Positions 8,269 to 45,767 of a DNA stretch of 64,000 nucleotides are shown one piece after another. Both the position numbers and the translations under genes were made by a program. A model generated the notes under the pieces. The model did no database searches, had not been told where the DNA came from, and was given only the letters and a program-made list of their open reading frames with translations. Every line of letters begins with the position of its first letter. Position 1 is the stretch's first letter. Source of the DNA: Prorocentrum cordatum. Lineage: Eukaryota > Sar > Dinophyceae > Prorocentrales > Prorocentraceae. The DNA is taken from positions 415,001 through 479,000 of the forward strand of contig CAUYUJ010017660.1 of the NCBI GenBank assembly GCA_963575745.1, given 5' to 3'.

Positions 8269-8465
8269 TGTGAATAGAACCCGTGTAATACCCTCATATA
8301 TACTCCTTATCCTCACCTCTCCTGCGCCTGGCCGTTTGGGCTCAGGTATTGGGACAGATCGATCAGACCTTTGATCGTGCAGGAGGGAAAGACATCCATC
8401 TATCCCTCCTTCCCTCTACCAACGGATCAGGGGTTCTGTGCCCTTGTACTTCAACCCCATTCACA
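8269..8465 (+). repeat. left LTR of element A
   Basis: Begins TGTGAATAGAACC and ends CCCATTCACA, so the inverted termini are TGTGAATxG/CATTCACA. An ATATATA box is at about 8297. At 8331-8346 the sequence GCCGTTTGGGCTCAGG resembles the end of the dinoflagellate spliced leader. Differs from the right LTR at about 8292, 8319 and 8353. Confidence 0.97.
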
Positions 8466-8480
8466 GGTTATCAGCCCTTT
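8466..8480 (+). other. primer binding site region
   Basis: The sequence directly after the LTR is GGTTATCAGCCC in element A and GGTGATCAGCCC in element B. It resembles, with gaps, the initiator-Met tRNA site of plant Copia elements. A match to a particular dinoflagellate tRNA could not be tested here. Confidence 0.4.
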
Positions 8481-8530: not shown

Positions 8531-11500
8531 ATGGAACCCAAGCGGCGCATGCGCCGTAAGGGGTCCATCGGGGCCTCGCGTCCGAGCTCTCCGACGGCGC
8601 GACGGCTCGGTGACGAGTTGGAGAGCCTTAGTGCGGACTGTGTTGGTGTCCCAGGTACCCCCCCCCCCCAGCTCCGACGGACCCGAGGCGCGGCTAGCTG
8701 CTGAACTTCACCGCAGCGCCGCCCGCGGGGGGACAGGAGAAGGAGTAGGAACAGGTAGGAAGGAGTTTCACACGCCTACCTTCGATCCTCCATCTCCTCC
8801 TCAGTCGGGAGCAATCCCAACTGCGTCAGGCGAAAGCCTCGCTGGTCCTGATACTCCAGGGCGCTTTCGCGCTAACCGCCGATGGACCTCAGGTGCTGGT
8901 ACCCCCAGCCCTGCGACCGCTCCTGTTGCGGGGCGCGTAGCCACCTTCGAGGAACTCAGTAGACCAGTGGCGGCACAGCCGCAGACGCAGTACCCCAAGG
9001 TATCATCGGATGAGACACCACACACACACACGGTCCTAGCCGCAGCTCGTCCGCCCGCGCGCAACCGTCGTGGGGCCCCAGGCCCATGCGGCGAGAGGAG
9101 GTCGAGCCCGCGTGCAGCCTCTCAGAGGCCAAGCACTCCTCGCGAGAGGGGGCAGAGGGAAGCCTATGCTCCCCACCTCTCCATCTCAGACGACCAGCTG
9201 GCGGAAACGTCCGCCGCAGCTGAAATAGCTGAGCTCAGAGACCAGGTTGAAACCTGCGTGTCCAGGCAATACTCTGGACTACTACAGAGCGTTCAGACGA
9301 ACGCTGCCAACACTGCAGCCATGCGCCAAGATCTTGACGGCGCCTTAGGGATCATCGATTCCAGGATTGCCGAAGATCGACGCATCATAGGTGAGCTGCA
9401 GTACCAGGTTGATCGCGAGGTGTCACACTCAGGTGAACGAACGGCGATGGTCGAGAACCTGCGCAGCTACCTAGCGCAGATGGAGCAACAGCTTGTGCTC
9501 GTACGCGACACAGGCGTTTCAGCAGTCAGGATCCTCCACGATGAGATCCACGACCAGCTCCGCAACCGACCGCCACCAGCCGAGGCCACCGACCTCGGCG
9601 ACGTTCAGTCTCAGATAAATGATCTTCGATCCCACATGGACCACACTACGGCGACGCTTCGCAACGAAGCACACACCAACTCGTCGAACCTGATCGACAT
9701 GTTGCAACGTGCTGAGAGAGTCATCGCCCAAAGGCTTGATGCGACCAACGCTGTCGTGCAGCCACTTGCTAACCGGATCTCTGAGATCGAGCAGCGTTTT
9801 CCTGGCGTACAGGACGCCCTGGCAGAGTTGCATGTCGGACGAGCCCAGACTGGCCAGCTGGATTTTCCTCCCACGGGTTACGATTTCGCCCGTCTCACTG
9901 ACAGGTTGCAGGAGGTTGAGAAGGCGGCGGGCCACACGCAGTTGGAGCTCTCCCAGGTTATTCGTGAGAGAGATACTGAGAAGGTACGTGTCGAGGGGCA
10001 CCTCGCACGTCTGGAAAGTGAGTCGAGGCGCAAGGCGCCCGTCTCCGAGCCTACGAGCAACGACTTGATCGGTATTCACAACGTTCTCGGGATACTGATG
10101 AATACACACGCCAAAAGGTGGCCCATATACACGAAGACATGACGAGCTGGACAAATCAGCTGATCGACCACACCAACGACACCAGTCTGCACCTTCGACC
10201 TGCAACCGACCTGCACAGGCCGACGGCAGCGTCCGCCGAAGCACCACAAGCTTCTGCAGGACAACAACGACGTACGTCACCAGGAGCAGCCTCTGCGGCA
10301 GCTTCAGCACAGACACGCCATGTGTCTCCTGTGCGCGTAGAACCGACTACTGACGGTGTACCGATACCCTCACAACCATTGTCTGCGGTTTCGGTCAATA
10401 CTACTACTCCTATCAAGGAGTCAGACACCGTCCGAGTCCCTGTCTTGCCTAAGATTACGCAGCTGCTCGAGTGGCAGCAAAAAGGTACGGAAGAACTGTG
10501 GCGCCGCCTCAGGGCGACCATCCAAAGCATATGCCTTCCTATGCGTGGCTGAACAGCCCGAGTGTACCTTCGATGACTTACAAGACAGTGGAGATTTCGA
10601 GAGCATCGATTGCAAACTCGTTACCGCTCTGAGCGACATCTTATCCTCAGACTTGCGCTACCAAATCAGGCTCATCGAAACCAGAGAACACAAAGCAGGA
10701 CGCATGCGCAAAGGACGCCAGATATACTGGCACATCCTACAGTCCTACAAAGTGACAGAGGTTGATGACGACCTGCACGACTTCGAGCGCCTTAAAGAAC
10801 TGAGGATGAGAGATGAAGACTTGCAACGTTTCATTTCTGACTGGGACGCTTTACTATTGGAGTGCCGAGAAGCACCCGACCCAAAGATCTTGGAATCTCT
10901 GTTTCGTACACAGATTCGGATACATGCCTGGATGAAACAAGACATGTATGAGTACCAGCGCATGAAGATCAGCGACCCGAATCGTACCTATGATTGGCTC
11001 CGACAGCGCGTCCTGGACGTACTGGAGCTCAAACAGTTGGAAAATAATCAAAATAAGTTACGGTACGAACACGAGACACGTTCTCAAGTCAGTGTATGTG
11101 CTGCCTGGAAGAAAGGCAATTGTCGCAATGGTGAACGATGCAAGGCTTTGCATACATGTTCCAGGGATTGGAAGAACAATAGACCTTCCAGAGCATCGAC
11201 CGCTGGTGGCAACGCCCGCCGCAGCGTGTCAACCCCTGCGGATCACAAGAAGCCAGCATCGAAACCATTCTGCTTCGAGTTCGCCAAGCGCAACGCATGC
11301 AACAGAGGCGACAAGTGCAATTTTCCACACGTTGCACAGTGTAAAGACTTCGCACAGAACAAGTGCCCCAAGGGCGACAAATGCAAATACGCTCATCTTA
11401 CACCTGGCGCGAAGACTCCCGAGCGAAGCCCGAGTCGACCACGGACCTCCAGTCAGGATAGTCGTGGCCGACCACCATCCCGCGGATCAGGAAGCCAACG

Positions 11501-12107
11501 TTCTTCACAACGCGGGGGGTTCCGCTACGCAAATGACTCACGCCATGGACGTGACAACCGACGCCACTACGACCGATCTCGTTCATCCTCCAGGAGGTCT
11601 CCAGATTCCCGCAGTCAGTCGAGAAGTCGTTACGACAGATCTTCGAGATCTACCTCCCGAGGACGAGACAACCGTGGCGGCGGACGTGGCAGCCCACGCG
11701 GCCGTGATAGATCATGCGGTAGTGACAGAGGACGTGGCAGACGTTCCACGAGCCGTGGTTCGTCCCGTGGTTCTCCCCACGCCAGAGCACGTTCTCCAGC
11801 CAATTATCGACGTTCACGCCGTTCCGACCGCAGTTACGTCATTCGTGACAAGACCCTCATGGCCAACGCTAAGGTCACTACGACATCTACCAAACCACGC
11901 CGTCGGATACGCTTCGACACACATAATGTGGAATACTACCTACATACCGTACCTGGCAGGGCCAGATTGGACACGTGGAAGGAGATGCCGAACGAGGGTG
12001 ACATTGTCAATGTACCAGACCCGCTACCACAACGATGGTGGGATCAGAGTGCAGACGCTCTACGAGAATGTCAAACAGAGGCACAGCTGTGGCACAAAGA
12101 TCTATAG
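8531..12107 (+). pseudogene. gag of element A (coiled coil, capsid-like region, three CCCH zinc fingers, Arg/Ser-rich tail), frameshifted
   Basis: Gag builds the virus-like particle and binds the element RNA. The likely start is the ATG at 8531 (MEPKRRM). A 12-C run at about 8658 puts it out of frame with the main body (frame of 8349-10142). Order: Pro-rich start, coiled coil at about 9200-10020, a capsid-like helical region at about 10470-11040, CCCH fingers at 11097-11400 (spacings C-x7/8-C-x5-C-x3-H) and an Arg/Ser/Gly-rich tail to about 11850. Two more frame breaks are visible by comparison with element B: a one-base loss near 10025 and an extra A near 10480. A TAG at 12105 replaces a Tyr codon of the other copies. 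Zinc fingers here are CCCH instead of the usual CCHC knuckle. Confidence 0.85.
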
Positions 12108-12734
12108 GACTACCGACACAACAAGGAGTCGGTGGTCACACCAACTGCGATCCGATAATACGACGACGCTACCAAGCAGTCATCAAAGACAGCCCAGACG
12201 AAGACAACGACGATGCAAGTCGACCCACCACGCCCGACTGCTGCTTTGACACGATCTTGGGTTCTCGACAGTGGTTCTGCGCATCATATTCAGGGTAAAC
12301 ATGAACTGACGCAGACCGAATCGGATCGCATATCTTTTCGCGAAGAGCATATTCTGGAAACTGCCAATGGTGATCGCGCTGTCAACGAGCACTACGACAT
12401 ACGGCTACCCGAGGTTGGCTTACATAGTTCAGCCCATGCCTTGCCAGACTGTCCATCATTACTATCAGTTGGGAAATTGACTGAGGATGATGGCTTTCGG
12501 CAGCTTTGGGATCCCGAGCTGGGCTACTTGCTTCAGGATCCGGGGGGCCAATGGTATAAGATTCCAGTCAACAATAGAGCTCCAGAATTACGACTCGACG
12601 ACCTCACACTGATACCGCCACCACGTCTGTGCACTTCGTCAGCACCCCGACGTCGTCAGCGCAAGCGTTCATCCGCCCGCTGCAACGACATGTTGGCGCT
12701 GCAAAACTACAGAGCAGTCAACAACTGCAGATAA
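12108..12734 (+). pseudogene. aspartic protease of element A
   Basis: A Copia-type retroviral aspartic protease that would cut the polyprotein. The core reads WVLDSGSAHHI, with the catalytic Asp-Ser-Gly at 12267-12275. It is followed by the hydrophobic and LLSVGKL segments typical of the protease to pre-integrase region. The frame continues directly from gag; the TAG at 12105 cuts it off in this copy only. A two-base deletion near 12691, compared with element B, breaks the frame just before the Cys-rich end (CCKTTEQ in B). Of the three copies in the window this is the only one with an intact catalytic triplet. Confidence 0.8.
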
Positions 12735-12816: not shown

Positions 12817-14994
12817 CCTCACGACACAAATAATGCCGAGACCAATGTGGACACACCCACCGACTCGCTCAAGTCTCAGACGCAGTGTTCTCCTCCAACA
12901 TGCGGGGGGCTAGCATATACAGCTCAAGCAGATACCGACATACCGACGGAGACACTCACACTAGTGCACCACGACAATGATCGCGTTCTTCCAAACAGAC
13001 AGAAGAAGCCCATCGACCCTATGCACTACATGACTCACAGTCCAAAACATCCAGACTGTGAGATTTGTTCTCGCACGATGGCGCAGAATGCACCGTGTCG
13101 TCGACAGCGCAAACCACATCCACCGGCAGACCCCACCGACGAGGACACAGCCTACGAGGCTTTTATCCCGAAGAAGTTTGGGGAAGCTCTAACTGCCGAC
13201 CATGTCGTCTTGGCCAAAGACGATGCCGCCGACAAGCACGGCGACAAGTATGCACTTGTTGTCCTGGATAGATACACTGGCATCTTCATGGCCTACCCAG
13301 CACTACACAAAGACGCAGCTACCACAAAGGCATCCTTTCAACAGTTCATCGCCGCGAACGATGAGGTGAAGCATATCTACACAGACAATTCTGGGGAACT
13401 TCAGAAGGCTTGCCGTCAACTGGGATGGAGACACGACACTAGTACGCCGCATCGTCCGCAAACGAATGGATTGATCGAGCGCGTTGCCAAGATTGTCATT
13501 CTCGGTACGAGAGCTGTGTTGCATATGTCTGGTCTGGGACATGAATGGTGGAAAGAGGCCATGCAAGCCTTTTGCTGTGGACATAATTTTGTGCATCCAT
13601 CCACGGGCGTTGCTGCCCTCAGCGAGGATCACGTCGACAAGACAGCTCATGAAATACGTGTTGGCGAAAGTTTTCCCGGGCACTGCGTTCCATTTGGTGC
13701 TCGGATCTTCTGGAAATGCCTCAACCCCGAGATTAATAACGAGACTGCAAAGTTCAAAGAAAACACTCGGGAAGGGTTATTCATGGGTTACCATTTACAC
13801 TCTGGTGGACGATGGTCAGGTGATTATCTTGTCTTGGACACGGTTACATGCGCCAAGAACCCCGATGGGGAACTGTGTCACGTGCACAGAGTCAAAGACA
13901 TCATCGTCCCCGATGGCAAGTTCACCTACCCAGTGAAAGAAGGTACTCTGCGACACCACAACCCTGAGGCACACAACGAGGTCAAGGCATCTACCTCTCG
14001 CCCCTTGGGCGACAAACCAATGCCCGATCCTCCACTTTCCTACCCTAAAGAATGGGATGATCCCTCTATGATGACAACGGAAGACAACATCGCTGATATC
14101 CACGCATCGGCCTCTGAAGTTGCTGCACCAGCGCCGGAGCCCGACTACTGGGAACAGCGCGGATATTGCGCCATCAGACATATACGTACTCCACGCAAGA
14201 AGTTGTTCATACCGACGGACGACGTCATGAACATACCTGTACCTGTTGATCAGCTCGACGTGACACGAGATTTCGAGACGACCTCTACCTTTGAAGGAGA
14301 AAGTGTCTCTCGCGATGTTTGGGACGGTGTCAGCGCCAACGACCACAGGGAGTTGAGCGAGCCATGGACCGGCTTGGTTCGATTCTATGAGCTTCCAAAA
14401 ATAACGCCAGATGGCAAAATGGTGGTCCGTGGCCGCGAGACACGTGTACAGACTACTACGCGTCCTGATCACATTCTTCCCGAGCGTTGGAAAACCTTAT
14501 CTCGTGGACAGCAAAAGAAAGAAATCGAGCACGCCGAAGATGTTAAACGAGCTCGTGAGATTCGTGACCGAGCTGCGCTTCGAGCGTGGACAAGACAGTA
14601 CAAACAGGCCAACAAATTCCGTACCACTACAGCTGGCGGGCCCACATGGAATGCCGTGGAACGAAGGATTACGTACGATACCGACAACGGCGCGGTCATC
14701 CGTGACGAAAACGTCAAGGGCGTGACGAACAAAGAGATTTTGCATGCCAAACTACCTGGTGGGCCACGCGACATTACTACGGTACTACGTGCTTTGGTGC
14801 TTGTGGATAGTGAGGGGATCGACTTTGGGACCATGAGCCCGCTTATACGCCAGTTCACCCAGTCGGTATCAGTACCCACTAGTCCACGTGAGACGACCTA
14901 TACACCGGCACACAGAGACAAAATTCCCGATTCCTCGTGGGCACGCCCGGCCCTAGTTACCAGAAACCTGAGTAAGAAAGAAGTTGCCGCATAA
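12817..14994 (+). CDS. integrase (Copia type, DD30E) of element A
   Basis: Joins element cDNA to the host DNA. The frame is open from 12817; a GTG at 12847 would be the first start-like codon, but translation more likely comes from readthrough. Counting from 12847: a His/Cys zinc-binding segment (HYMTHSPKHPDCEIC) at about residues 59-73, then the catalytic core with D118 (LTADH), D180 (YTDNSGEL) and E211 (QTNGLIER), a D-x61-D-x30-E spacing. The Copia C-terminal signature with GLFMGYH follows at about 305-320. Residues beyond 370 are acidic and Arg-rich without a known domain. The frame ends at TAA 14992. Compared with the second copy, the left third belongs to lineage A and differs from B. 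Confidence 0.9.
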   Translation, partial: PHDTNNAETNVDTPTDSLKSQTQCSPPTCGGLAYTAQADTDIPTETLTLVHHDNDRVLPNRQKKPIDPMHYMTHSPKHPDCEICSRTMAQNAPCRRQRKPHPPADPTDEDTAYEAFIPKKFGEALTADHVVLAKDDAADKHGDKYALVVLDRYTGIFMAYPALHKDAATTKASFQQFIAANDEVKHIYTDNSGELQKACRQLGWRHDTSTPHRPQTNGLIERVAKIVILGTRAVLHMSGLGHEWWKEAMQAFCCGHNFVHPSTGVAALSEDHVDKTAHEIRVGESFPGHCVPFGARIFWKCLNPEINNETAKFKENTREGLFMGYHLHSGGRWSGDYLVLDTVTCAKNPDGELCHVHRVKDIIVPDGKFTYPVKEGTLRHHNPEAHNEVKASTSRPLGDKPMPDPPLSYPKEWDDPSMMTTEDNIADIHASASEVAAPAPEPDYWEQRGYCAIRHIRTPRKKLFIPTDDVMNIPVPVDQLDVTRDFETTSTFEGESVSRDVWDGVSANDHRELSEPWTGLVRFYELPKITPDGKMVVRGRETRVQTTTRPDHILPERWKTLSRGQQKKEIEHAEDVKRAREIRDRAALRAWTRQYKQANKFRTTTAGGPTWNAVERRITYDTDNGAVIRDENVKGVTNKEILHAKLPGGPRDITTVLRALVLVDSEGIDFGTMSPLIRQFTQSVSVPTSPRETTYTPAHRDKIPDSSWARPALVTRNLSKKEVAA

Positions 14995-15869
14995 CCACGT
15001 GCACAGGAAGCCCTGCGAAAATAATACGAGCGACTTGAAAAGAAACAAACGTGGATGTTGGAGACCGTTGCAGAGAAAGCTGATATTGAGTCACAAGCTA
15101 TTCGCACTGGGACGAAAGTTCATTTCTTCAATATCTTGGAGCTATCTTCAGTCAAACACGAGGAACTTCCGCCTGATCTACGTAAATTCAAGGGCCGAGT
15201 GGTGGTTCAGGGCAATACAGGCAAAGATGAAACTGGTTTGGCCGTCATATTCGCCGACGCCGCTTCCAGCGTTTCGCATATTGAGGCTTCCAAACTTTGT
15301 GCGATGCTACTGCATTATTGCCACACTATGCGGGCAAACAAAGTGATGCACCTGGAGCCTACACGCAAGCATTATTATACGGCCACGGACGAATCGATCC
15401 AGTTCATACATGGATTACCATACCCAAATGGCGCCAACCGGCATCCTGGTCAAAATACAAGAATCCAGTGTGCCGATTACGATTGGCACTATACGGACAC
15501 CCTCTTGCAGGTGTCTTTTGGGGAAGAAAGTGTCGCACATGCTTGGGAAGTGTTGGTTTCGAGCCTCTTCCAGGATGGGAATGCGTATGGAGACACAACA
15601 AACTGGGACTGCTACTTTCAGTATATGTGGACGACTTCAAATTAGCCGGACTGGCTAACAATCTACAAACTGGCTGGGATTATATCCGCAAGAGCGGTAT
15701 TGACTTGGATCCACCTACTCCATACTCGCAATATCTTGGCTGTGGACAACAGGCATACGATGTACCGCAGAACATGTTCGACAAAATAATGTCTACCATG
15801 CGACCTATGTTGCCCGCACACAGTGAGAGATTTCCATACAGCCAAACAAATTCGTGGAATCCGACATGA
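14995..15869 (+). pseudogene. reverse transcriptase of element A, frameshifted
   Basis: Copies the element RNA into DNA. It follows the integrase in the same frame after TAA codons at 14992 and 15022, and protein-like sequence (YERLEKKQTW) fills the gap. FKGRVVVQGN at about 15190 is the Copia fingers motif. The first catalytic Asp is in SDAPGAYTQ and the pair is in YVDD at 15624-15635, with ALYGHPLAGVFW between. The early part reads in the frame of 15055 and the later part in the frame of 15297, so there is a frameshift near 15300-15345. A second break near 15830 shifts into the RNase H frame. The copy at 40377 has the same lesions. Confidence 0.88.
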
Positions 15870-16614
15870 CATGCTTGGTTTTACTGATCAGTGCATTGAG
15901 CGGTGCCTGGAATGCGCTTCCAAGCGCGCCAAGGGACCAGGGTCACGTCGGAAACGGTCCGACTCGCCGAGGACTTCGCGATCCAAATCGCCTGTCTCCT
16001 CCGGATCGGTCGCCAGACCTACTAGCGTGCTCAACGCGCGGCCACGATCATCCAGCCCAGCAAGATCGGTCGATACACCATCTACTACAACAGAATCAAT
16101 ACCAGTCGCATACGATGACCTACCTGACGCCGAGACCCCTGGCATCGAGGACACCTCCTTCACCGATTCCGATTACTCCGACGAGGGCATCCTTGGCCAG
16201 GACGCGGCGAGTGTACTGATGAAGATGCTCTACCTGGCACGTTGCTGTTGTTTCGATCTTTTACATCCAGTATGTATGCTAGCCAGAGAAATTACCACAT
16301 GGAATACCACGTGTGATAAACGTCTACATCGATTGATACGCAACATCCAAACGACGCGCACACATTGTTTACACGGATGGATGGGCGATTCGTCAGACAA
16401 GTTATCCATCATGCTCTTCACTGACGCCTCGTTCGCCGACTGCATTACACCCTCCAAGTCCACTGCCGGCGTTTTCGCCGCGCTTGTTGGACCTAATACG
16501 TTTTTCCCGGTCAACGCTGTGCGTAACAAACAAACGGTTGTATCGCACTCATCTACATAATCAGAGATTGTTGCTCTTGACTCAGCACTACCACTACTCT
16601 CATTATGGGAAGCC
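15823..16614 (+). pseudogene. connection region and RNase H of element A, with Arg/Ser-rich insert
   Basis: RNase H removes RNA from the RNA-DNA hybrid. After a short linker there is an Arg/Ser/Pro-rich stretch (about 15935-16070) not usual between Copia reverse transcriptase and RNase H. LMKMLYLAR and DKRLHRLI at about 16220-16335 match the Copia connection region. RNase H begins with LFTDASFAD, its first catalytic Asp at 16423. The TAA at 16558 falls inside the SST-E-x-E motif of Copia RNase H, exactly where Glu is expected, and the frame continues SEIVALDSAL. The lesion is shared with the second copy. Confidence 0.82.
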
Positions 16615-19230
16615 GTGGTGGGAGTTGCCAACACATGCAATGAGAAGAATACTTGCCTGGGCTGCCAGGGACGCGCCGACACGGCGACGTATCCGACATT
16701 GGCCGCCAAAAAGAAGAGGCGCAAGCCATCGCCTCGCAAGGCGCCACCCACAAGGGGATCTTCTCCTAGCCGTAGGCTGCTACCGCTGAAGACGGAAATC
16801 TTACGTACAGAGAAAGAAAGATGGGGCGAGGTAGGTTCAGAATGCGGAATGCAGTGCGTTGGACAAGCCAATCACGAGGACATATGCGCATGCATGTACC
16901 ATATTGGTGCACCCGCTGCAGCTCCCCGTTCGCGCACACCTCGTTCGAGAGCACGTTCCCCGCGCGGTAGACAACCCCGCCATCCTCCCTCACCTCCACA
17001 GGATACAGAGAGGTCTAGGACACTCATTGTGCGTTCGTGCCGCAGCAATTTTACGACTCGAGCTACAAAGCTTACAAGCATCCTGTTCGCCGTGTGCGAG
17101 GCGCAAATAAGTGAGATCGGTTCTAATCCCGATGCCCTCATCCCCGAGATGGATCAGGCACAGCCGCCCCACCTCGTCGGCTGGCCCATCGGCTGCGACG
17201 CCGAGTACGACCCGAACGCCAAGGACGACGACCGCGTGGGCTTCACGTACCACGCTCAAACTGGTCGTCCTCGTGATCCTGATGATGGACACATATACAT
17301 ACATCAACGGCGCGCTGATCGCAGTGCAGATTTTGATCTCCGCGTACCCGACGAATCCACTATTCGAGAAGTTGCCCGCTCTGCGTCCGCTGACGTCAAG
17401 AGTTGGATCAGCGAAACTGGTGGAACAGTCGGCCGCGACGCCAACTACGAGTACATCACGATTACGGCTACACCATGGCTGTCTTTCATGAGGGCCATGT
17501 GCATGATCTCCAGCCTCTTCACTCGTAACTCGTCCGTACAAGAAAGTGTTCGTGGCTTACATGATCATTTGAACGCGGTGACCCCAGGAGCACACCGCAA
17601 GTGTCCGCCAATGGACCTCGCGACGGTGATATTGAAGACGGAGTGGATTATGATTCACAACGATTGGTCAAACATTGGCAGTGCAGTACTTGGACAATCT
17701 GCCGAGGACAGCGTTCAGGATACAAAATACTATTATGGAAATGGTATTTGCGCACCTTCCGACGTATACAGCAATGGATTGACAACTCCAAGCTACGCTC
17801 CTAAACTTGACCGTGGTACGATCAAGTTACCTACACGCCCACCTGGCTTAGCCAGGACATCAGATACTGCGGGACACATTGGCCACGTTGTCGAAGATAA
17901 TATTGTCACCGAAATGAGGGCATTTTCCGACATTAACCAGGCGAGCAATTTCCGCCGCAAGCTCAGTACATGGCTGACTGCACGCGGAGGCTTTGGAGGT
18001 ATCGGGTCATACCCCAAGACGGTGGTAACGCCATCGGATCACCCAGACGGCTGGCAGGCACTACCAGAGTACGACGAAAATATGACGAGTACTTATCGTT
18101 GGCAACCATACGACGAGGGCTCGGTATTCATTGGCGAGGCCCCCGCTGAGGTTGACCCTGGCCTTACTCCTGGTACTGATATTGACCCACTTGAGCTTGA
18201 ACAAGCAAAGTGCAGCGCGTTTTGTGGTGGTCGGTTGGTTTCTACTATTCTTTCAGACAACGGGTGGCACTCACTCGTACAGGAAGACCTGGGACTTCTT
18301 CTGCATCATGCCTTCGGTCCGTCAGGGCACGCATACAAATGGGCCAATTTGCACACCGGTTCAACATGGATTACGCAGCCCAAGAAAGGATCCAAGGCCG
18401 TCAAGCACAAGAAGTACCCAAGTCACTTCATCGACGAGCTCAACAGTCCACGAATGCGAGACCATCTCGCCAAAGTATCAAACGTTGGTCTTGTACCGTT
18501 ATTTATGCCGTGCCTCAATCGCGCGGAATGCATGGGTGGCGCTACCCTGGAGCATTTGTCGACCATTATCCGCGACGACATCATGATGTGGGCATTCCCC
18601 TTTGGCAATTACAAAGAATGGTTCAAACAGAACGACACGCCGATTGGCCAGGACTGCATTCAATTGCCAGAGGCTGGTGGAGACACCCGCTGTGATATGG
18701 CACAGCTCCGTGAACAGCGTACGCAGACACAGGAGAGCCGTACCACAGCTATTCTAAACAACAAGTTCGAGTCCACCCTCGAGCAGCGCAACATGATCAA
18801 CATGATCCGCGAGGCCAGAGGTCTGATGATAATGAGCGACAATGCCTCTATCAAAAAGTGGCGTGAATTAAACGAGGCCGTCTGGGAATATTGGGCTAAC
18901 GACTTTCCTGCATACGTGAAACAAAGGCACTATTGCAGAGGCGTCAATGCCATGGTGGCATGGAGCGCAAACGACATTGCATGTGCCAACCACGGACAGA
19001 ATACCGTGGACATGCGTCGCCACGAGAATCGTGCACCTACTTCTGTGCGCGAGCTCCAGAAGATGGAATGTGAGGGCGGCGTCCCGACGCTTATGCCAGT
19101 ACACGTACAAGTGGATGTACCACGCTTTATTGATGTGATGCAGTACTTCCGTTGCCCTACGGTTATGGGGCCAGGCAAAGCAGCGCAATGGGGCGTACAC
19201 CGAACTTCGATTACCACACGGACGATTTGA
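16615..19230 (+). CDS. orphan 871-codon frame downstream of RNase H, element A
   Basis: Not recognised as any family. The frame is in phase with RNase H and is open from 16561, so it is probably the polyprotein tail and 16615 (GTG) is not a real start. The first 110 residues carry a basic KKKRRKPSPRK segment and an Arg/Ser-rich run. The rest is soluble-looking with balanced composition, many Trp and conserved-looking motifs such as GWPIGCDAEYDP and ITATPWLSF, and no membrane segment. It overlaps the next frame by 79 bp. The second copy at 41997 is nearly identical with no new stop codons. Function unknown. Confidence 0.7.
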   Translation: MVGVANTCNEKNTCLGCQGRADTATYPTLAAKKKRRKPSPRKAPPTRGSSPSRRLLPLKTEILRTEKERWGEVGSECGMQCVGQANHEDICACMYHIGAPAAAPRSRTPRSRARSPRGRQPRHPPSPPQDTERSRTLIVRSCRSNFTTRATKLTSILFAVCEAQISEIGSNPDALIPEMDQAQPPHLVGWPIGCDAEYDPNAKDDDRVGFTYHAQTGRPRDPDDGHIYIHQRRADRSADFDLRVPDESTIREVARSASADVKSWISETGGTVGRDANYEYITITATPWLSFMRAMCMISSLFTRNSSVQESVRGLHDHLNAVTPGAHRKCPPMDLATVILKTEWIMIHNDWSNIGSAVLGQSAEDSVQDTKYYYGNGICAPSDVYSNGLTTPSYAPKLDRGTIKLPTRPPGLARTSDTAGHIGHVVEDNIVTEMRAFSDINQASNFRRKLSTWLTARGGFGGIGSYPKTVVTPSDHPDGWQALPEYDENMTSTYRWQPYDEGSVFIGEAPAEVDPGLTPGTDIDPLELEQAKCSAFCGGRLVSTILSDNGWHSLVQEDLGLLLHHAFGPSGHAYKWANLHTGSTWITQPKKGSKAVKHKKYPSHFIDELNSPRMRDHLAKVSNVGLVPLFMPCLNRAECMGGATLEHLSTIIRDDIMMWAFPFGNYKEWFKQNDTPIGQDCIQLPEAGGDTRCDMAQLREQRTQTQESRTTAILNNKFESTLEQRNMINMIREARGLMIMSDNASIKKWRELNEAVWEYWANDFPAYVKQRHYCRGVNAMVAWSANDIACANHGQNTVDMRRHENRAPTSVRELQKMECEGGVPTLMPVHVQVDVPRFIDVMQYFRCPTVMGPGKAAQWGVHRTSITTRTI

Positions 19231-20385: not shown

Positions 20386-22038
20386 ATGGCAGGACAGCTG
20401 CGAGCGTTCCATGTACGAGGACATCAGCCAGATCGGGACGTTCGACAACGCGTGCACTATTCGAGAGTACAAGCTTCAAGCAGGCATCGTGGATGACCAT
20501 CCGTACGTTTCTCTTGTATTGCGAGGTACGTCCGCGACCAATGGCTTGCGTGTCTGCAGAATGAGGATTGGTTCGATCAATTGCAACACGACGATTGTGT
20601 GATTGCTCATGCTCCCGATATTGCACAATCTGGTTGTTTTCCAGAATGGAAGTGGATATCGCTACCACATTACGACGATATACGTTATGGTCCTGAACTA
20701 CTTGATGAGTGGCTCGGAGATCCTAAATACATGAGCAAAGACATCACGACGATGTTACGCCACGAGATCCACTACAAGAAGATCCACATCAATCAATTTC
20801 ACGATCGACGCATCAACATATGGCCGAAGACAACGGATCGTGATTGGAAGATCCCAAGTAATTGGAATTCCTTTCAGGATATGGTCCAATGGAAATTTAG
20901 TGAGCGTCAAAACCACAACGGACCATCCAGCGATGCGGCCATCGCGCACTTCAAAAAGGATGGTGAGCAAGACGGGTATCCCGATTGGAATGATTACTAC
21001 CCGATCTTCATCATTCGCGCGTTCCAGAAACATATTGACCCGCAGAAGAATCGGATTGAGATATACGCCAAACCAATCCCCGACGCAAGCGACCCCAGCT
21101 GTTTCGATTGGAGCAGCGTTATTGCCATTCGATGTGTTGGAGGCCACAGTTGCGTCAATCCACTTTCCAAACCGTGGAACATGGGTTGGGAGAGCCTACA
21201 ATGGACAGACGTGAAATACCTCCACCACGGCACGACATTTCGTGCTTGGCGCAACATCCTTAAGTCAGGGATCGTTCCTGGCTATATCGATCCATCTTCT
21301 CAGAGAGACAAGTATTATAAAGGATCACCACTCACGGAGGCATTCTTCAGTTCCAGCACATACACAGACAATGTCCAGAATAATCCCCACAACTCGGTAC
21401 AATCATACAAGTTCAATCACTACAAGAACGAGGTCGAGCTGGTGATCAACATGGAGATTGCCACAAAAACTGGTTGCAGATTTTGGTTGGGCGCCCAAGG
21501 TGCTATTATGACAGAAGACGTGTTTCCCGCAGCGGCAGTTATTGCAATTCGCCGTCTCCAACCGCGCCACGAGCACGGCCGGCAGATATGGCCGGAGGGC
21601 CCGGCCTGGGAATATCCGCCATTGGCCGCGAGACAACCATTGAGCAAATGCGAAATTTGCGCCGTTCTTCCTGGGCAGGAGTTCATCGATGACCCTCTTG
21701 GGATTACACCAGCTGACATGGATCACGACATGGACCAGCAGCCAAGGACGCCGTCCGCATCAGCATCTTCGGCTCAGCGACCGATTGCCCCTCAGCTGGG
21801 GGCAACCCCTGCTGGCCGCATATCTGACGCCGACGCTCTGGATGAACAAATGGTCCGCGCTATGACCGACAATTGCGAGCACAATACAGAAGATAAAGAA
21901 TGGTCGATAGCTATGTCAAACTGCCGAGAGGCTCTTCGACCCAGGACTTCATTGTCACTAAGAATTGGGGATCTACCACTTGCTATCATTATGACAAGCA
22001 CTACCCCAAGGGCAATCACAACACCAAAGTGCTCATGA
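20386..22038 (+). pseudogene. RNA 2'-phosphotransferase (Tpt1/KptA)-like protein of element A
   Basis: Known Tpt1/KptA enzymes remove the 2'-phosphate left at RNA splice junctions, using NAD+. Numbered from 20581: MSKDITTMLRH at 51-61 matches the N-terminal LRH box; QKNRIEIY at 155-162 matches the basic strand before the active site; IRCVGGHS at 183-190 matches the IRAxQGHS box; HHGTTFRAW at 215-223 matches the HGT box; GCRFWLGAQGAIMTEDV at 298-314 matches the last conserved strand pair. The RxHxH box after HGT is not clear (replaced by EAFFSSSTY), so activity is uncertain. I chose the ATG at 20386 because the frame is open except for one TGA at 20494. The C-terminal 100 residues are Pro/Ser-rich and then leave the frame. 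Confidence 0.75.
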
Positions 22039-22223
22039 ACAAGGGCCACATATACGGCCCAATCATTCATTTCGGAGTCTTTGACAAGTTCTTTGCGGTA
22101 CAAATACCTATCCTGAACTACGGTTTACGATGGGTAAACATATGGTATTGCGACAAAACATGCCTCTCAAGGGAGTTGTCTTCGCTTTGCCAGTACGTGC
22201 CGACATCGACCCGAGAGATATGA
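21900..22223 (+). pseudogene. continuation of the Tpt1-like protein in another frame, element A
   Basis: Protein-like sequence (YVKLPRGSSTQDF, KNWGSTTCYHYDKHYPKG, IYGPIIHFGVFDKFF) resumes one frame over just where the Tpt1-like frame loses sense at about 21930. It fades at about 22110, where the next long frame takes over. I read 20386-24390 as one former protein cut by two frameshifts. The conserved-looking Tyr, His and Gly residues suggest a folded domain of about 70 residues. No family recognised. Confidence 0.5.
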
Positions 22224-24391
22224 ATACTGCGCTGGAAGGACCATCCTCATGCCGCGACAGAATACATCAGCATAAAACAGATGGTGATCTACCATATCTT
22301 GGAACGCCGAGCGTTTATAAGCCACGTATCCCACGTACGCCGACCAGACGGCCCGCTCCTCGGACACCCGATCCCGAACAGCTGGTGGCCACACCTGCCG
22401 ATGATACTGCTACCGCAGACGATGGACCCGAACAAAAGGCAGGCCAATCTGCTGACCCTCTGGTTACCGTCATCGTGGATATATCAAACATCCCACTCAC
22501 TGCCGAGGAAAAAGCAGCAAATGACAACATGAGAGCAGATTTATCAGCAGAGATCCAAGCAGATGAGGACGTCGACGCGAGCATCCTCGACAATATCATC
22601 GACCCGCCAGAGGACTTCCCCAACCATCCCGACTACGACCCAGACAACGATTCAAAGTGGATCACGCAATCCTACGACCACCGCATATACCGCCGGACGT
22701 CGGAGTTGTTGGTGGACGCACCTATGATAAACGTGAAACAAATCATTGAGGTGCATACTGGCAGGGAGAGGATTGCGGTGGATAAAGGACAGTCACACTT
22801 CCGATTTGAGATTCAATTTGGATCCAAAACGTGGAACGCAGAAACATACTATTTGGATTACAATCATACCCACAAATGGGCACGTGACTTACCGATTTGC
22901 AGTGCAGATCGCTTCTTTAAAAAGTTGGTACACTACCTGGACCCAGAGGCCATCGATGAATCAACTACAGGCGTCTTCCAATGGATTTCTAAGGTGTATC
23001 TCATCTTGCTGGACAGCATTGCGGAGCCTCGTGATTTCACAAAATATGCTACTCATCAGAACCATCCTGCACTCAAGACGTTACGTGATCTGTTTGCACA
23101 TTGTATCCAGACATTCGGCAACCCAGGCTTCCCCGCATGGAGGGAGCTGGTGGAAACACCTGCCGCGCCACATGAGGACCCAGGCGTGGAGCAGGACATT
23201 CCCCAGGACCCAGGCAGCGTTGCATCCGCAGTTCCAGATCAGGAAACCACGGTACGGCTCATAGCCCAGCAGAAGAGAATCGACCGCGAGGAGGGTGACA
23301 ACGAGTCCGCCTTGCAGGGAGAGGCTAACCGCATCCGTACAGAAAACGTATGCCACGGTGATACTGACAACGCGGGCAACGACACGACTGAGCGCGTAGG
23401 ACTGCCAGGGGAAAGATTCTCTAGGATCGAGATCGAGGGAATGAGCCGATCGATCGCTTCCCGTCCGACCGCCGAGATCAACCGCGATGCCATGGATCAG
23501 ATCGGCCGCAGTCTTGCTCGTGGTCGGGACACTCGCTGGGGATCCCGTGAGCACCTCACGATTGACGGAGCCCCAGAAGATATCCAGCATGATATCGCGC
23601 GATGTCGGAATTGCGGTCGCCTCTTGTCTCTAGGGATCGTTACAGATGAAGGTACCGTTTGTGACATCTGTTGGCAGTGCACTGTTGCCGTAGGTGCTGC
23701 GGGTAAAAGTACCGCTGTCGAGAGCGACCTGGCATGCCTCCAGAAGCTGACCCACTGGATCAAGACGACGCTCTCCCAGGACGACATCACAAGGTACATG
23801 AGAGACGGAACGCAGGTCATAATGATGGGCAAGCGCTCCATTTCAGGACATGAGAAAGACGTGCTGAGGAGATTGGCAAATGCTGCTAGGAAGAGGTATG
23901 AGAAGTGGGTCGCCGCTGGCTCCCCTCCTGCACACATGTGCAGATTGATGGGCGAGCGTGACGACGACAGACCTCTATACCATCCCTTTGCCAACCTCGT
24001 TCAGCGCTTTCTCAATGATTTGAAGTTCCACCACCAAATGACAGGCGCTCGTGTCAAAAAAGGCAAGAATGCATATACCATTGAAGACAGGCGCGACGCC
24101 TGTGAAATCCTCGAGACCAGCATCAGGACCGGCCAAGCTGGTCGGAAGAAGTGGTGGTTGAACGCAGGCAGACTCGACCGAAGCACGCGGCAGGCGCGCG
24201 GACTTGTCGCGATTGCCCGTCCCAGAGGGGATGGCGCCCGTGAGAGAGTCACGCAGCGCAAGCTTGCCGTGCTTGCTTCTGTTGAACCCGCCCTGGGTTC
24301 CACTGACCAGAGGGGGGTTGATTCAGGGATGAGAACCGATCCGATCGAACCTGATACATACTCCCAACACTCTGATGAATGCCATGGAGCC
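22130..24391 (+). CDS. long orphan frame with Cys-rich zinc-ribbon-like cluster, element A
   Basis: Not recognised as a whole. The open frame runs to 25087, but codons past about 24391 are Ala/Arg/Gln-rich shadow of the better-supported frame at 24375, so I end it there. A Pro/Thr-rich linker is at residues 65-95 and an acidic region (ADEDVDASILDN) near 145. Residues 200-340 look like a folded domain (FRFEIQFGSKTWNAETYYLDY). At 492-517 a cluster CRNC-x15-CDICWQC could bind zinc. The C-terminal third is basic (AARKRYEKW, GRKKWWLN) and could bind nucleic acid. It probably continues the Tpt1-like protein. The second copy is nearly identical. Confidence 0.6.
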
Positions 24392-24836
24392 ATGCCAGCC
24401 GCGGCACCCGCCGCCGCCGCCGCGCCCTGCCCCTGGCGACGCTGCAGGGTCCAGCGCCTCTGGCGCGCAGGACTACATGCCCGCGGGGCTGCGCGGCACT
24501 GCAGCGCAGCGGCAGGACAGCGACGACAGCCGCAGACCTGCGACACCTCCCCGCGCCAAGAGGGCGCGCACGACGGAGGACTACGCTACATGGTGGCGCG
24601 ACAACCTAGAGGACAGCCAGTGGGCCCCCAGATATTGGAGCTACTACATCAAATGCTGGATATACATCACGGACAACAACGACGAGTTCGTATACGTCCG
24701 CGACCTCCAGTACAACGAGTGGTTCCGCCACTGGATCCCGAGGGCGCCTTGGGAGACCTTCGCGACGAGCTACGTATCGCACGATGGCCGCAGGATGCGG
24801 GGCCGCAGGTTCTACGAGAGGGGCAACGCGCAGTAG
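24375..24836 (+). CDS. 153-codon terminal frame of element A
   Basis: Not recognised. It starts at ATG 24375 (MNAMEPCQ) and overlaps the previous frame in another phase. The first 55 residues are Pro/Ala/Gly-rich. KRARTTEDY at about 63 is a basic, nuclear-signal-like segment. Residues 70-130 are rich in Trp, Tyr and Asp (ATWWRDNLEDSQW, RYWSYYIKCW), with balanced composition unlike the Arg/Gln-rich reading of the other phase. That supports this phase as the real one. It may be the end of the preceding protein after a frameshift. The second copy differs by one residue. Confidence 0.55.
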   Translation: MNAMEPCQPRHPPPPPRPAPGDAAGSSASGAQDYMPAGLRGTAAQRQDSDDSRRPATPPRAKRARTTEDYATWWRDNLEDSQWAPRYWSYYIKCWIYITDNNDEFVYVRDLQYNEWFRHWIPRAPWETFATSYVSHDGRRMRGRRFYERGNAQ

Positions 24837-25548
24837 AGTCGGCCGCCGGGCCCACCGCTCGAAAGGTTAGAACTTTATCGTTACACAAGTTCGCCTCGAG
24901 CGGTGGCTATCATATTCTCTTAGGCCTCCTCACTATTCCAGAAAAGTGGCCACGCGCACATCCTTGCGATACCCAGGGCAGCCTCCTAAGGGGCAACGCC
25001 GACGGGAGTGGCCAAATACAGAATTCACATATGCAACTTTTCGTGTTTATCAACGCGATCTTGCGTCTGGCCAGACATTTGCTTTGATATTTAGACGTGT
25101 TTCTAAACGCGATCGTGTTCATCAGCACGAACCTAGACTGCATTTTTGTATCGTTTACTCTTTAGACTTTGCTTACATTGCGTTGAGAATGATCTGATGC
25201 CCAGCTCTCGACAGAGAGCTGGTGGCAACACCTGCCCCGCTCTGGCGCGGCAGATTCTGATGTTGCTTTAACTGGCTCAGATCCTCTTTCTCCGCCCACC
25301 CGTGTCTCATTTTTCTCCGCCCTCGAATGCCGAAGCGTTTTTGGGGGGCGCACCGAGGGGGCACCAAAGCGTGCTTGGCGAAGAAATTGGGACCCTGGGT
25401 GTTCCTTCTTACCTCACTCTGCAGCTGAAGCTACACAGATCTTACGCTCAGCTGCCTGACAAATTGAGGGTTAGAGGAGTAAAAGGGTGACGGGATCTTT
25501 TCCTCTGTTCCCGAGTCCTACCCTTACGGGCGGGATTCGGACGGGGTG
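24837..25548 (+). other. 3' untranslated region of element A
   Basis: About 710 bp without a convincing frame. CTCTCGACAGAGAG at about 25205 is a perfect short palindrome. The sequence just before the right LTR (GGGATTCGGACGGGGTG) is only weakly purine-rich, so the polypurine primer cannot be placed with confidence. Confidence 0.5.
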
Positions 25549-25745
25549 TGTGAATAGAACCCGTGTAATACCTTCATATATACTCCTTATCCTCACCTTT
25601 CCTGCGCCTGGCCGTTTGGGCTCAGGTATTGGGGCAGATCGATCAGACCTTTGATCGTGCAGGAGGGAAAGACATCCATCTATCCCTCCTTCCCTCTACC
25701 AACGGATCAGGGGTTCTGTGCCCTTGTACTTCAACCCCATTCACA
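25549..25745 (+). repeat. right LTR of element A
   Basis: 197 bp, TGTGAATAG...CATTCACA, three substitutions from the left LTR. It is identical to the right LTR of the second element at 50931-51127. Confidence 0.97.
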
Positions 25746-33639: not shown

Positions 33640-33857
33640 TGTGAATAGAACCCGTGTAATACCCTCATATAGTACTCCTTATCCTCACCTCTCCTGCGCC
33701 TGGCCGTTTGGGCTCAGGTATTGGGACTTCCCAAGTGCGCTTGGGACTGATCGATCATACCGTTGATCGTGCAGGAGGGAAAGACATCCATCTATCCCTC
33801 CTTCCCTCTACCAGCGGATCAGGGGTTCTGTACCCTTGTACTTCAACCCCATTCACA
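33640..33857 (+). repeat. left LTR of hybrid element (B type)
   Basis: Same termini as the A LTR, with about 20 extra bases after TATTGGGAC, an extra G in ATATAGTACTCC and several substitutions (GTACCC for GTGCCC, CCAGCGG for CCAACGG). The leader-like GCCGTTTGGGCTCAGG is at 33703-33718. Confidence 0.97.
33730..33745 (+). promoter_or_regulatory. hairpin insert specific to B-type LTR
   Basis: CCCAAG TGCG CTTGGG forms a perfect 6-bp stem with a 4-base loop inside the extra bases of the B LTR. It is also in the third element (59101-59116) and absent from both A LTRs. A regulatory role is conjecture. Confidence 0.45.
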
Positions 33858-33922
33858 GGTGATCAGCCCTTTAAAGCTCACCGTTCATCGAACCCCGCGT
33901 CGCGACCTCGCACGCGGCCTCA

Positions 33923-35362
33923 ATGGAACCCAAGCGGCGCATGCGCCGTAAGGGGTCCATCGGGGCCTCGCGTCCGAGCTCTCCGACGGCGCGACGGCTC
34001 GGTGATGAGTTGGAGAGCCTTAGTGCGGACTGTGTTGGTGCCCCAGGTACCCCCCCCCCCCCAGCTCCGACGGACCCGAGGCGCGGCTAGCTGCTGAACT
34101 TCACCGCAGCGCCGCCCGCGGGGGGACAGGAGAAGGAGTAGGAACAGGTAGGAAGGAGTTCCACACGCCTACCTTCGATCCTCCATCTCCTCCTCAGTCG
34201 GGAGCAATCCCAACTGCGTCAGGCGAAAGCCTCACTGGTCCTGATACTCCAGGGCGCTTTCGCGCTAACCGCCGATGGACCTCAGGTGCTGGTGCCCCCA
34301 GCCCTGCGACCGTTCCTGTTGCGGAGCACGTAGCCACCTTCGAGGAACTCAGTAGACCAGTGGCGGCACAGCCGCATACGCAGTATCCCAAGGTATCATC
34401 GGATGAGACACCACACACATGGTCCGAGTCGCAGCTCGTCCGCGCGCAACCGTCGCGGGGCCCCGGGCCCATGCGGCGAGAGTAGGTCGAGCCCGCGTAC
34501 AGCCTCCCAGAGGCCAAGCGCTCCTCGCGAGAGGGGGCAGAGGGAAGCCCATGCTCCCCACCTCTCCATCTCAGACGACCAGCTGGCGGAAACGTCCGCC
34601 GCAGGTGAAATAGCTGAGCTCAGAGACCAGGTCGAAACCTTCGTGTCCAGGCAATACTCTGGACTACTGCAGAGCGTTCAGACGAACGCTGTCAATACTG
34701 CAGCCATACGCCAAGATCTTGACGGCGCCTTAGGGATCATCGATTCCAGGATCGCCGAAGATCGACGCATCATAGGTGAACTGCAGCACCAGGTTGATCG
34801 TGAGGTGTCACACTCAGGTGAACGAGCGGCGATGGTCGAGAACCTGCGCAACTACCTCGCGCAGATGGAGCGACAGCTTGTGCTCGTACGCGACACAGGC
34901 GTTTCAGCAGTCAGGATCTTACACGATGAGATCCACGACCAGCTCCGCAACCGACCAACACCAGCCGAGGCCACCGACCTTGGCGACGTTCAGTCTCAGA
35001 TCAATGATCTTCGATCCCACATAGACCACACTACGGCGACGCTTCGCAACGAAGCACACACCAACTCGTCGAACCTGATCGACATGTTGCAGCGTACTGA
35101 GAGAGTCATCACTCAAAGGCTTGATGCGACCAACGCTGTCGTGCAGCCACTCGCTAACCGGATCTCTGACATCGAGCAGCGTTTTCCTGGTGTACAGGAC
35201 GCCCTGGCAGAGTTGCGTGTCGGACGAGCCCAGACTGGCCAGCTGGATTCTCCTCCCACGGTTTACGATTTCGCCCGCCTCACTGACAGGTTGCAGGAGG
35301 TTGAGAAGGCGGCGGACCACACGCAGTTGGAGCTCTCCCAGGTTATTCGTGAGAGATACTGA
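33923..35362 (+). pseudogene. gag N-terminal half of hybrid element (B lineage), frameshifted
   Basis: Starts MEPKRRM at 33923 as in the other copies. A 13-C run at about 34050 breaks the frame, and a TAG near 34484 interrupts the Pro-rich part. The coiled coil is open in the frame of 34403-35362 (ISDDQLAETSAAG to QLELSQVIRERY). A GA loss near 35352, compared with element A (RERDTEK), moves the rest of gag into the frame of 35121. The coiled coil probably mediates Gag self-association. Confidence 0.75.
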
Positions 35363-45634: not shown

Positions 45635-45767
45635 CCATTGCCAACAGAACAGCTCCCGAAAGCCGAGACAGTACCGATCCCCGACGACGGCACTGACTTA
45701 GATGCGATGGAGTTGGAGGCAATCCTGCCGACGACGACCTTTCTCCACACACGATGAATATATTATC

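What the first reader, a model, noticed from the sequence alone, without database searches (positions are those of the whole stretch)
20386..22038. Tpt1/KptA-like RNA 2'-phosphotransferase carried inside a Copia-type retrotransposon
Seen: boxes LRH, KNR, IRxxxGHS, HHGTT and GCRFWLG in the correct order, between RNase H-linked orphan frames and the right LTR. Established: Tpt1/KptA removes splice-junction 2'-phosphates or modifies phosphorylated RNA ends with NAD+. Inference: the element may have captured a host gene, possibly to repair cleaved RNA (its own genome or its tRNA primer) or to counter a host RNA-cleaving response. I know of no described Copia element with this cargo.
Basis: partly seen in the sequence, partly recalled or inferred. 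Interest (0 to 1): 0.82.

Follow-up and report, generated by a model that had tools for sequence, protein, structure and literature searches.

The report
RNA-end enzyme inside Copia retrotransposons
A jumping gene of the Copia type in a very large, dinoflagellate-like genome carries its own relative of an enzyme that trims or caps phosphates on RNA, and a second Copia family in the same genome carries one too, at a different place in its proteins, which suggests the enzyme helps these elements copy themselves.

Summary
Window 20497-22038 encodes a divergent Tpt1/KptA domain (PF01885, 28.9 bits, cut-off 26) inside a Copia-like LTR element: 197-bp LTRs at 8269-8465 and 25549-25745, TSD GATTC, order Gag-INT-RT-RNase H. 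It is no one-off passenger. A second insertion 50 kb away (TSD AGGTC) carries it. The genome search scored 84 full matches (82-100% identity); all 18 on a contig with a listed LTR/PBS junction have it upstream on the same strand. One copy has RT and RNase H boxes and Tpt1 in a single 2849-aa frame. [quoted passage not shown] A second, distinct Copia family has a full-length Tpt1 match (84.8 bits, tetrad 13 of 13 rows) in a Gag-type frame beside a RING finger. My searches of open PMC papers listed no Tpt1-bearing retrotransposon; KptA in viral polyproteins and DNMTs in dinoflagellate retroelements are known. Best reading: an element-encoded, NAD+-dependent RNA-end enzyme used in replication. 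Its substrate is unknown.

The parts
8269..8465 (+). Left LTR of element X (starts TGTGAATAG, ends CCATTCACA); preceded by GATTC
   Evidence: 194 of 197 positions identical to right LTR
8466..8477 (+). Primer-binding-like stretch GGTTATCAGCCC directly after the LTR; 744 LTR/PBS junctions of this kind in the genome (up to 2 mismatches)
   Evidence: 373 + 371 matches; reversed-pattern control 0 and 1. Primer tRNA not identified
10341..12107 (+). Gag-like frame with three CCCH zinc fingers
   Evidence: PF00642 43.6 bits, three stretches
12159..12734 (+). Frame with a retropepsin-like VLDSGSAHH motif (probable protease)
   Evidence: motif by eye; no Pfam match
12817..14994 (+). Integrase frame
   Evidence: PF00665 rve 31.2 bits, E 2.8e-7, just under cut-off 32.6
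15025..15869 (+). Copia reverse transcriptase, split over two frames in this copy (YVDD box)
   Evidence: PF07727 RVT_2 24.5 bits, E 2.4e-5, under cut-off 31.6, for 15285-15866
16400..16640 (+). Copia RNase H boxes (LFTDASFAD ... VVSHSST / SEIVALDSAL), approximate limits
   Evidence: motifs by eye; same boxes in the 2849-aa frame of copy C16263
16561..20252 (+). Frames of unknown function between RNase H and Tpt1
   Evidence: 16561-19227 has no Pfam match; most of the equivalent region of copy C16263 (L033:6445-9998) has none in Pfam, NCBIfam, PHROGs
20497..22038 (+). Open frame with the Tpt1/KptA-like domain
   Evidence: PF01885 28.9 bits
20731..20763 (+). N-lobe motif MSKDITTMLRH (first two tetrad residues Arg, His)
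   Evidence: R and H 20 of 20 rows
21046..21054 (+). KNR box (third tetrad residue Arg)
   Evidence: R in 19 of 20 rows
21121..21516 (+). NAD+ lobe matched by PF01885 (IRCVGGHS, HHGTT, TEAFF, GCRFWLG)
21331..21333 (+). Codon at the fourth tetrad position: Leu here, Arg in 19 of 20 related rows
   Evidence: column placed against the second family's GRSHIH by hhalign (weak score)
22085..25087 (+). Frame downstream of Tpt1, unknown function
   Evidence: no Pfam match
25549..25745 (+). Right LTR of element X, followed by GATTC
33640..51127 (+). Second copy: chimera with element Y's 5' part and element X's 3' part, with Tpt1 frame at 45879-47420
59011..64000 (+). Third copy (element Y), runs out of the window; its left LTR is preceded by AGGTC and its right end, at contig position 491943, is followed by AGGTC; its Tpt1 match is at contig 486647-488095

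Best explanation
The stretch is a resident gene of a Copia-type LTR retrotransposon family and encodes a divergent member of the Tpt1/KptA group of NAD+-dependent ADP-ribosyl transferases. In one copy with a long open frame it lies C-terminal to the RT and RNase H boxes in the same frame; in a second Copia family of the same genome a closer relative of Tpt1 lies inside a Gag-type frame upstream of a protease motif. Shown: element membership, conservation of the tetrad, purifying selection, two different placements. Inferred: the domain is delivered with Gag/Pol into the replication particle and acts there on phosphorylated RNA ends or 2'-phosphates (element RNA, primer tRNA or cleaved host RNA), either removing a 2'-phosphate through a 2'-phospho-ADP-ribose intermediate as Tpt1 does, or ADP-ribosylating a 5'-phosphate as TRPT1/KptA do in vitro. 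I favour RNA-end clean-up or protection in support of reverse transcription. The window's own copy is a mutated, probably dead example.
For: PF01885 above cut-off. Place in the element: 18 of 18 with the junction upstream, 13 of them at 12.0-12.9 kb. Two independent insertions with their own TSDs carry it. VDD box (residue 219), TDAS box (484) and Tpt1 lie in one 2849-aa frame at C16263. dN/dS median 0.28 over 188 of 190 pairs; 0.23 for changes shared by two or more rows against 0.64 for singletons, as expected if selection acts while elements replicate and stops after insertion. First Arg and His 20 of 20, third Arg 19 of 20, fourth Arg 19 of 20. Second family: 84.8 bits, tetrad 13 of 13 rows, dN/dS 0.25, 13 of 131 scored matches in open frames of 2935-2946 aa. 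The tetrad is required both for 2'-phosphate removal (PMC6333775, passages) and for 5'-end ADP-ribosylation (PMC6582358, passages).
Against: No activity or expression data. The class A match covers the C-lobe only; NCBIfam gives only E 0.064, the copy in C16263 scores 18.4 bits, under the cut-off, and hhalign against Tpt1-like sequences and class B is weak. The RxHIHL box reads RTEAFF in class A, so His-x-His is lost there. In class B the Arg of TRPT1's SGMR box is Asp. No ligase, kinase or 2H domain was recognised in the neighbouring frames scanned, so a complete repair pathway would need host enzymes. The class B PBS begins TGG, as for an ordinary CCA-ended tRNA primer, so a special primer end is not a shared reason.
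Confidence: 0.6

Rival explanations
1. The domain acts on the host, not on the element's own RNA: an element-carried ADP-ribosyl transferase that caps or repairs host RNA ends cut by a defence RNase, or modifies host factors (in the second family beside a RING finger, a ubiquitin-ligase type module).
For: KptA in phages and a few RNA viruses is read as an answer to RNA-cleaving host attack or RNA-end processing (PMC9503650, passages). RING finger PF17123/PF13639 above cut-off in the same frame of the second family. TRPT1 ADP-ribosylates 5'-phosphorylated RNA and DNA (PMC6582358, passages).
Against: No RNA-cleaving defence is known to me in dinoflagellates (recall, not searched); nothing in the data points to a host target; position in the same frame as RT-RNase H boxes or Gag-type domains suggests an action inside the replication complex.
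Confidence: 0.25
2. A catalytically altered Tpt1 fold kept as an RNA-binding or structural part of the polyprotein, with little or no transferase activity, at least in the window's family.
For: Class A is strongly divergent, lacks His-x-His after the fourth Arg, and matches profiles weakly.
Against: All four tetrad residues and HGT are kept in nearly all 20 rows, which a purely structural role would not require; the second family keeps them in 13 of 13.
Confidence: 0.12
3. Chance resemblance, or a host gene fragment swept along once and without function.
For: The window copy is broken by stops and frame changes and lacks the fourth Arg.
Against: Pfam above cut-off; 0 of 100,000 shuffles for the N-lobe motif; junction upstream in 18 of 18; purifying selection; a second family with an unmistakable Tpt1.
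Confidence: 0.03

Closest known systems
Tpt1 / KptA / TRPT1 RNA 2'-phosphotransferase (PF01885; yeast Tpt1, human TRPT1, bacterial KptA)
   Same: Arg-His-Arg-Arg tetrad positions, SK-x6-[LC]RH N-lobe motif, HGT box, order of boxes
   Different: Element-borne, inside retrotransposon frames; longer stretch between the RH and KxR boxes (94 residues in class A, 82 in class B, 42 in the TRPT1 chain 7yw3; counted); class A lacks His-x-His
DNMT-bearing retrotransposons of Symbiodinium and the charophyte K. nitens (de Mendoza et al. 2018, PMC5890265; passages read)
   Same: Captured nucleic-acid enzyme in the coding frame of algal retroelements, several independent acquisitions, purifying selection on the domain
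   Different: Those are LINE, DIRS and Gypsy elements with a DNA methyltransferase; the paper says the Copia elements lack any DNMT domain. Here: Copia, and an RNA-end/NAD+ enzyme
KptA domains embedded in viral polyproteins (Beihai picorna-like virus, Botrylloides leachii nidovirus) and in phages (PMC9503650, passages read)
   Same: Tpt1/KptA domain inside a selfish element's polyprotein, proposed to process RNA ends
   Different: RNA viruses and phages, not reverse-transcribing elements; words beginning 'retrotranspos' do not occur in that main text
Other accessory domains in retrotransposon polyproteins: chromodomain, DnaQ-like exonuclease, SF1 helicase (PMC6338049, part 1 of 4 of the text read); RNA demethylase in orchid Ty3/Gypsy (PMC9289625, search listing only)
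   Same: Extra domain fixed in a retroelement polyprotein
   Different: None of those named there is an ADP-ribosyl transferase or 2'-phosphotransferase, in what I read

Membership tests
Tpt1/KptA (PF01885) | Profile match above the curated cut-off | tested here: met
   28.9 and 30.9 bits against 26 for the window; 84.8 bits for class B. One class A copy (C16263) falls below, at 18.4
Tpt1/KptA (PF01885) | Arg-His-Arg-Arg tetrad | tested here: met
   Class A family 20/20, 20/20, 19/20, 19/20 rows; class B 13/13 each. Not met by the window's own copy at the fourth position (Leu). Class A third position placed by motif, fourth by a weak hhalign alignment
Tpt1/KptA (PF01885) | N-terminal winged-helix RNA lobe fused to the NAD+ lobe | tested here: inconclusive
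   Motif SK-x6-LRH present but no profile match to the N-lobe in class A; class B matches model 4-177
Tpt1/KptA (PF01885) | HGT motif contacting NAD+ | tested here: met
   H and G 20/20, T 19/20 in class A; 13/13 in class B
Tpt1/KptA (PF01885) | Three-dimensional fold | tested here: inconclusive
   Two-row AlphaFold model failed, mean pLDDT 29.7
Tpt1/KptA (PF01885) | NAD+-dependent 2'-phosphotransferase or RNA-end ADP-ribosylation activity | not testable with these tools
   -
Copia (Ty1) LTR retrotransposon | LTRs with inverted TG...CA ends and 5-bp target duplication | tested here: met
   TGTGAATAG...CCATTCACA, 194/197 identical; GATTC on both sides
Copia (Ty1) LTR retrotransposon | Integrase before reverse transcriptase | tested here: met
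   rve in 12817-14994 (just under its cut-off), RVT_2 in 15285-15866
Copia (Ty1) LTR retrotransposon | RVT_2-type reverse transcriptase | tested here: met
   Window copy E 2.4e-5 but 24.5 bits, under the cut-off 31.6; second family 35.1 bits, over it; the RT piece of C16263 (L033:4345-6444) gave no Pfam match
Copia (Ty1) LTR retrotransposon | Primer-binding site matching a host tRNA | tested here: inconclusive
   Conserved GGTTATCAGCCC; two tRNA patterns found no matching tRNA

The most novel reading that the evidence does not exclude
Two architecturally different Copia lineages in one genome recruited a Tpt1/KptA enzyme separately, one C-terminal to RNase H and one in the Gag-type frame. NAD+-dependent processing or capping of RNA ends would then be a recurrent part of the Copia replication cycle in this lineage, a step I know of for no reverse-transcribing element.
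Probability: 0.3. Interest if true: 0.82.

Novelty: new variant of a known kind. Interest (0 to 1): 0.64.

Why it matters
Tpt1/KptA is widespread, yet what it does in organisms without a fungal-type RNA ligase is not obvious (PMC6333775, passages). A selfish element that keeps the active site under selection gives a defined RNA-replication context in which to look for a substrate. It also adds an NAD+/ADP-ribose enzyme to the functions that LTR elements have taken on, in two placements and in at least 84 + 131 scored copies, so comparative and biochemical tests are directly possible.

Tried and rejected
Structure prediction of the window domain (two rows, the only inputs clearly allowed) gave no usable model, so no fold search was run. 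phmmer of the window frame against PDB sequences: none at E up to 1. Protein search with the window frame in 5.8 billion proteins: none at E up to 0.001; with the class B domain: one relative, P0001, 190 aa, 73% identical over 61% of the query, labelled Pyramimonas sp. AAC in EukProt, which may be a related element, a transfer or a contaminant and was not resolved; with part of a class B Gag-type frame: none. IMG/VR scans with both domains: none confirmed. Profile-profile comparison of class A with this genome's Tpt1-like sequences and with class B was weak (probability 4.1 and 0.4), whereas class B against Tpt1-like sequences was strong (98.8, E 6.5e-17). A PDB search with the C16263 region before Tpt1 gave only chance-level hits (best E 0.034).

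Idea that the primer is a tRNA half, as recalled for Drosophila copia (from memory, no call): the PBS begins GGTTAT, like the copia PBS as I recall it, and its complement GGGCTGATAACC looks like an anticodon arm. A tRNA with that arm and a T-arm was not found (one match, whose surroundings I did not examine further; an initiator-tRNA pattern, 0 matches, so the pattern itself may be wrong for this genome). The class B PBS begins TGG. Not supported; kept only as a possibility for class A.

Assembly artefact or simple tandem copies as an explanation for the 25-kb repeat: rejected, because the three copies show two different TSDs and a crossover point.

Searches returned 0 papers but used a phrase that cannot match 2' with its prime, so they count for little. 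Searches are the informative ones (34 papers, 20 listed; 248 papers, 30 listed). By titles and abstract starts none reports a retrotransposon with Tpt1/KptA; papers that hold both a Tpt1 word and 'retrotransposon' (PMC9498494, PMC3558436, PMC5124317, PMC4053983, PMC3549820) were not opened. The library holds open-licence PMC papers only.

Full report
WHAT WAS CHECKED. The window is contig C16811:415001-479000 of a 4.13-Gb assembly with 21,875 contigs. The size fits a dinoflagellate such as Prorocentrum cordatum (about 4.15 Gbp in the abstract listed for PMC10449503); the identity is inferred, not given. PF01885 (RNA 2'-phosphotransferase, Tpt1/KptA) scores 28.9 bits for the frame and 30.9 for the trimmed domain, above the curated cut-off of 26, over the NAD+ lobe. 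Ten of ten class A rows scanned (two from the window; ten of the eleven stop-free rows, one near-duplicate left out) match PF01885 at E up to 1, best 3.2e-7. PHROGs and NCBIfam also put RNA 2'-phosphotransferase first, but only at E 0.0018 and 0.064. The N-lobe is supported by the motif MSKDITTMLRH, which 0 of 100,000 shuffles gave.

THE ELEMENT. The domain lies in a 17.5-kb LTR element, X, at 8269-25745. Its 197-bp LTRs differ at 3 positions, begin TGTGAATAG and end CCATTCACA, and GATTC flanks both sides. Inside are a Gag-like frame with three CCCH zinc fingers, a VLDSG protease-like motif, an integrase (rve, just under its cut-off), an RVT_2-like reverse transcriptase (under its cut-off, E 2.4e-5) and RNase H boxes, then about 8.5 kb of further frames in which the Tpt1 frame sits. 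This copy is broken: RT and the following frames are split by stops and frame changes.

THE TANDEM ARRAY. The window shows the element two and a fraction times at a 25.37-kb period. The flanks explain it. X has TSD GATTC. Another element, Y, starts at 59011 after AGGTC and ends at contig position 491943 before AGGTC. The middle copy (33640-51127) has Y's left flank and X's right flank; it is 94-95% like X over its first 5 kb, 98.5% over the next kb and 99.2-100% afterwards, and its left LTR is identical to Y's. So X and Y are two separate insertions, and the middle copy is best read as the product of unequal crossing-over within the integrase frame. X and Y differ by 6-7% in the first 7.5 kb or so, by 9-12% in most of the rest and by 17% in the last kb, and both carry the Tpt1 frame.

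OTHER COPIES. The own-genome search with the window protein scored 84 full matches (87 rows, three of them short fragments, left out here; 2299 candidates at first look, so a lower bound) at 82-100% identity, the window's own copies included. The LTR/PBS junction pattern, with up to 2 mismatches, occurs 744 times (373 + 371; reversed control 0 and 1). Of the 84 matches, 18 lie on a contig that also holds one of the 100 junctions listed; in all 18 the junction is upstream on the same strand, 13 at 12.0-12.9 kb and 5 elsewhere between 7.5 and 14.9 kb (three of the 18 are the copies of this array). At C16263 the RT box VDD (residue 219), the RNase H box TDAS (484) and the Tpt1 domain are in one 2849-aa open frame; the domain of that copy scores only 18.4 bits and its RT piece has no Pfam match.

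A SECOND FAMILY. A search of the genome with PF01885 scored 150 places (2877 candidates). Seven score 96-186 bits; of these L001 (186 bits, full tetrad), L002 and L004 look like ordinary Tpt1 sequences, L003 has a stop and L005-L007 are more divergent. The other 143 score 71-92 bits in open frames of 287-4482 aa. One of them, at C10113, is a 16-kb LTR element with 252-bp LTRs (6 differences), GGGGC on both sides and a PBS-like TGGTAGCGGAGC directly after the left LTR. It has a 2941-aa frame with a CCHC zinc-knuckle match just under its cut-off, Tpt1 (84.8 bits, model 4-177), a RING finger and a retropepsin-like DVGS motif (by eye), then a stop, an integrase-like region (by eye; no Pfam match) and RVT_2 (35.1 bits, over its cut-off). 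With its domain as query 131 matches scored, at 93-100% identity, 13 of them in open frames of 2935-2946 aa (3469 candidates). So two Copia families in one genome bear Tpt1 at different places. Class B aligns with a TRPT1 chain in the PDB (7yw3, E 3.6e-12) and with this genome's own Tpt1-like sequences at 29% identity, so it is not a recent copy of those.

SELECTION AND ACTIVE SITE. Twenty class A rows (the 20 loci supplied, of 84; some near-duplicates among them) and 13 class B rows (12 fetched of 131, plus the C10113 copy) were compared. Median dN/dS is 0.28 (188 of 190 pairs, those with dS above 0.01) and 0.25 (78 of 78). Reading the same rows in the other frames gives 1.1-1.7, except for one antisense frame (0.37 and 0.31), which I take to be the one whose third positions coincide. 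Changes shared by two or more rows have a ratio of 0.23 (A) and 0.19 (B), singletons 0.64 in both, as expected for selection during replication and decay after insertion. Human TRPT1 needs R40, H41, R86 and R150 for ADP-ribosylation of RNA 5' ends (PMC6582358, passages), and the same tetrad serves 2'-phosphate removal (PMC6333775, passages). Class B residues align with these positions of 7yw3, the first two in a stretch of score 0. Class A keeps the tetrad in 20, 20, 19 and 19 of 20 rows; class B in 13 of 13 each. The class A third and fourth positions rest on box matching and a weak hhalign alignment. The one class A row without the fourth Arg is the window's own copy; the one without the third is L027.

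MECHANISM. Shown: a resident, selected, Tpt1-type domain in two element families. Inferred: it acts on phosphorylated RNA in the replication particle. Tpt1 chemistry offers two outcomes, removal of a 2'-phosphate with release of ADP-ribose cyclic phosphate, or ADP-ribosylation of a 5'-phosphate end, and the tetrad does not tell them apart. KptA in phages and in a few RNA-virus polyproteins is read as an RNA-end repair function (PMC9503650, passages). No ligase, kinase or 2H domain was recognised near the domain, so a full repair route would have to use host enzymes. Counter-defence or host targeting is a serious rival, more so for class B with its RING finger.

NOVELTY. Retroelements that capture enzymes are known, also in dinoflagellates (DNMT in LINE and DIRS elements, PMC5890265, passages; that paper says Copia lacks any DNMT domain). 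The literature searches that ran listed no paper whose title or abstract start reports a retrotransposon with Tpt1/KptA; three of them were badly worded, matching papers were mostly not opened, and the library is open-licence PMC only. I rate it a new variant of a known kind. The least certain points are the membership of class A at fold level, whether the two families took up Tpt1 separately, and the substrate.

Noticed in passing
window 8269-25745, 33640-51127, 59011-64000: A three-unit array best explained by unequal crossing-over between two separate insertions (TSD GATTC and AGGTC), with the exchange in the integrase frame: a clean natural example of a chimeric LTR element.
   Followed up: yes
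window 10341-12107 (also L033:390-2147): The Gag-like frame carries three CCCH (C-x8-C-x5-C-x3-H) zinc fingers instead of the usual CCHC knuckle.
   Followed up: no
L031:4372-9999 with L032:3-3194 (C10113): Second Copia family with zinc knuckle, Tpt1, RING finger and protease motif in one 2941-aa frame; TSD GGGGC, PBS-like TGGTAGCGGAGC.
   Followed up: partly
window 16561-20252 and 22085-25087; L033:6445-9998: Long element-encoded frames on both sides of Tpt1 match nothing in the libraries they were scanned against (Pfam; also NCBIfam and PHROGs for the C16263 copy); function unknown.
   Followed up: partly
P0001: A 190-aa predicted protein labelled Pyramimonas sp. AAC in EukProt is 73% identical to the class B Tpt1 domain over 61% of the query: transfer, wide distribution or contamination.
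   Followed up: no
L029:3117-8576 and L036:4781-9999: Long stretches open in most or all six reading frames (about 1700 codons), probably stop-free tandem repeats.
   Followed up: no
window 8466-8477: Conserved PBS-like GGTTATCAGCCC lacks the TGG expected for a CCA-ended tRNA; its complement resembles an anticodon arm, but no such tRNA was found.
   Followed up: partly
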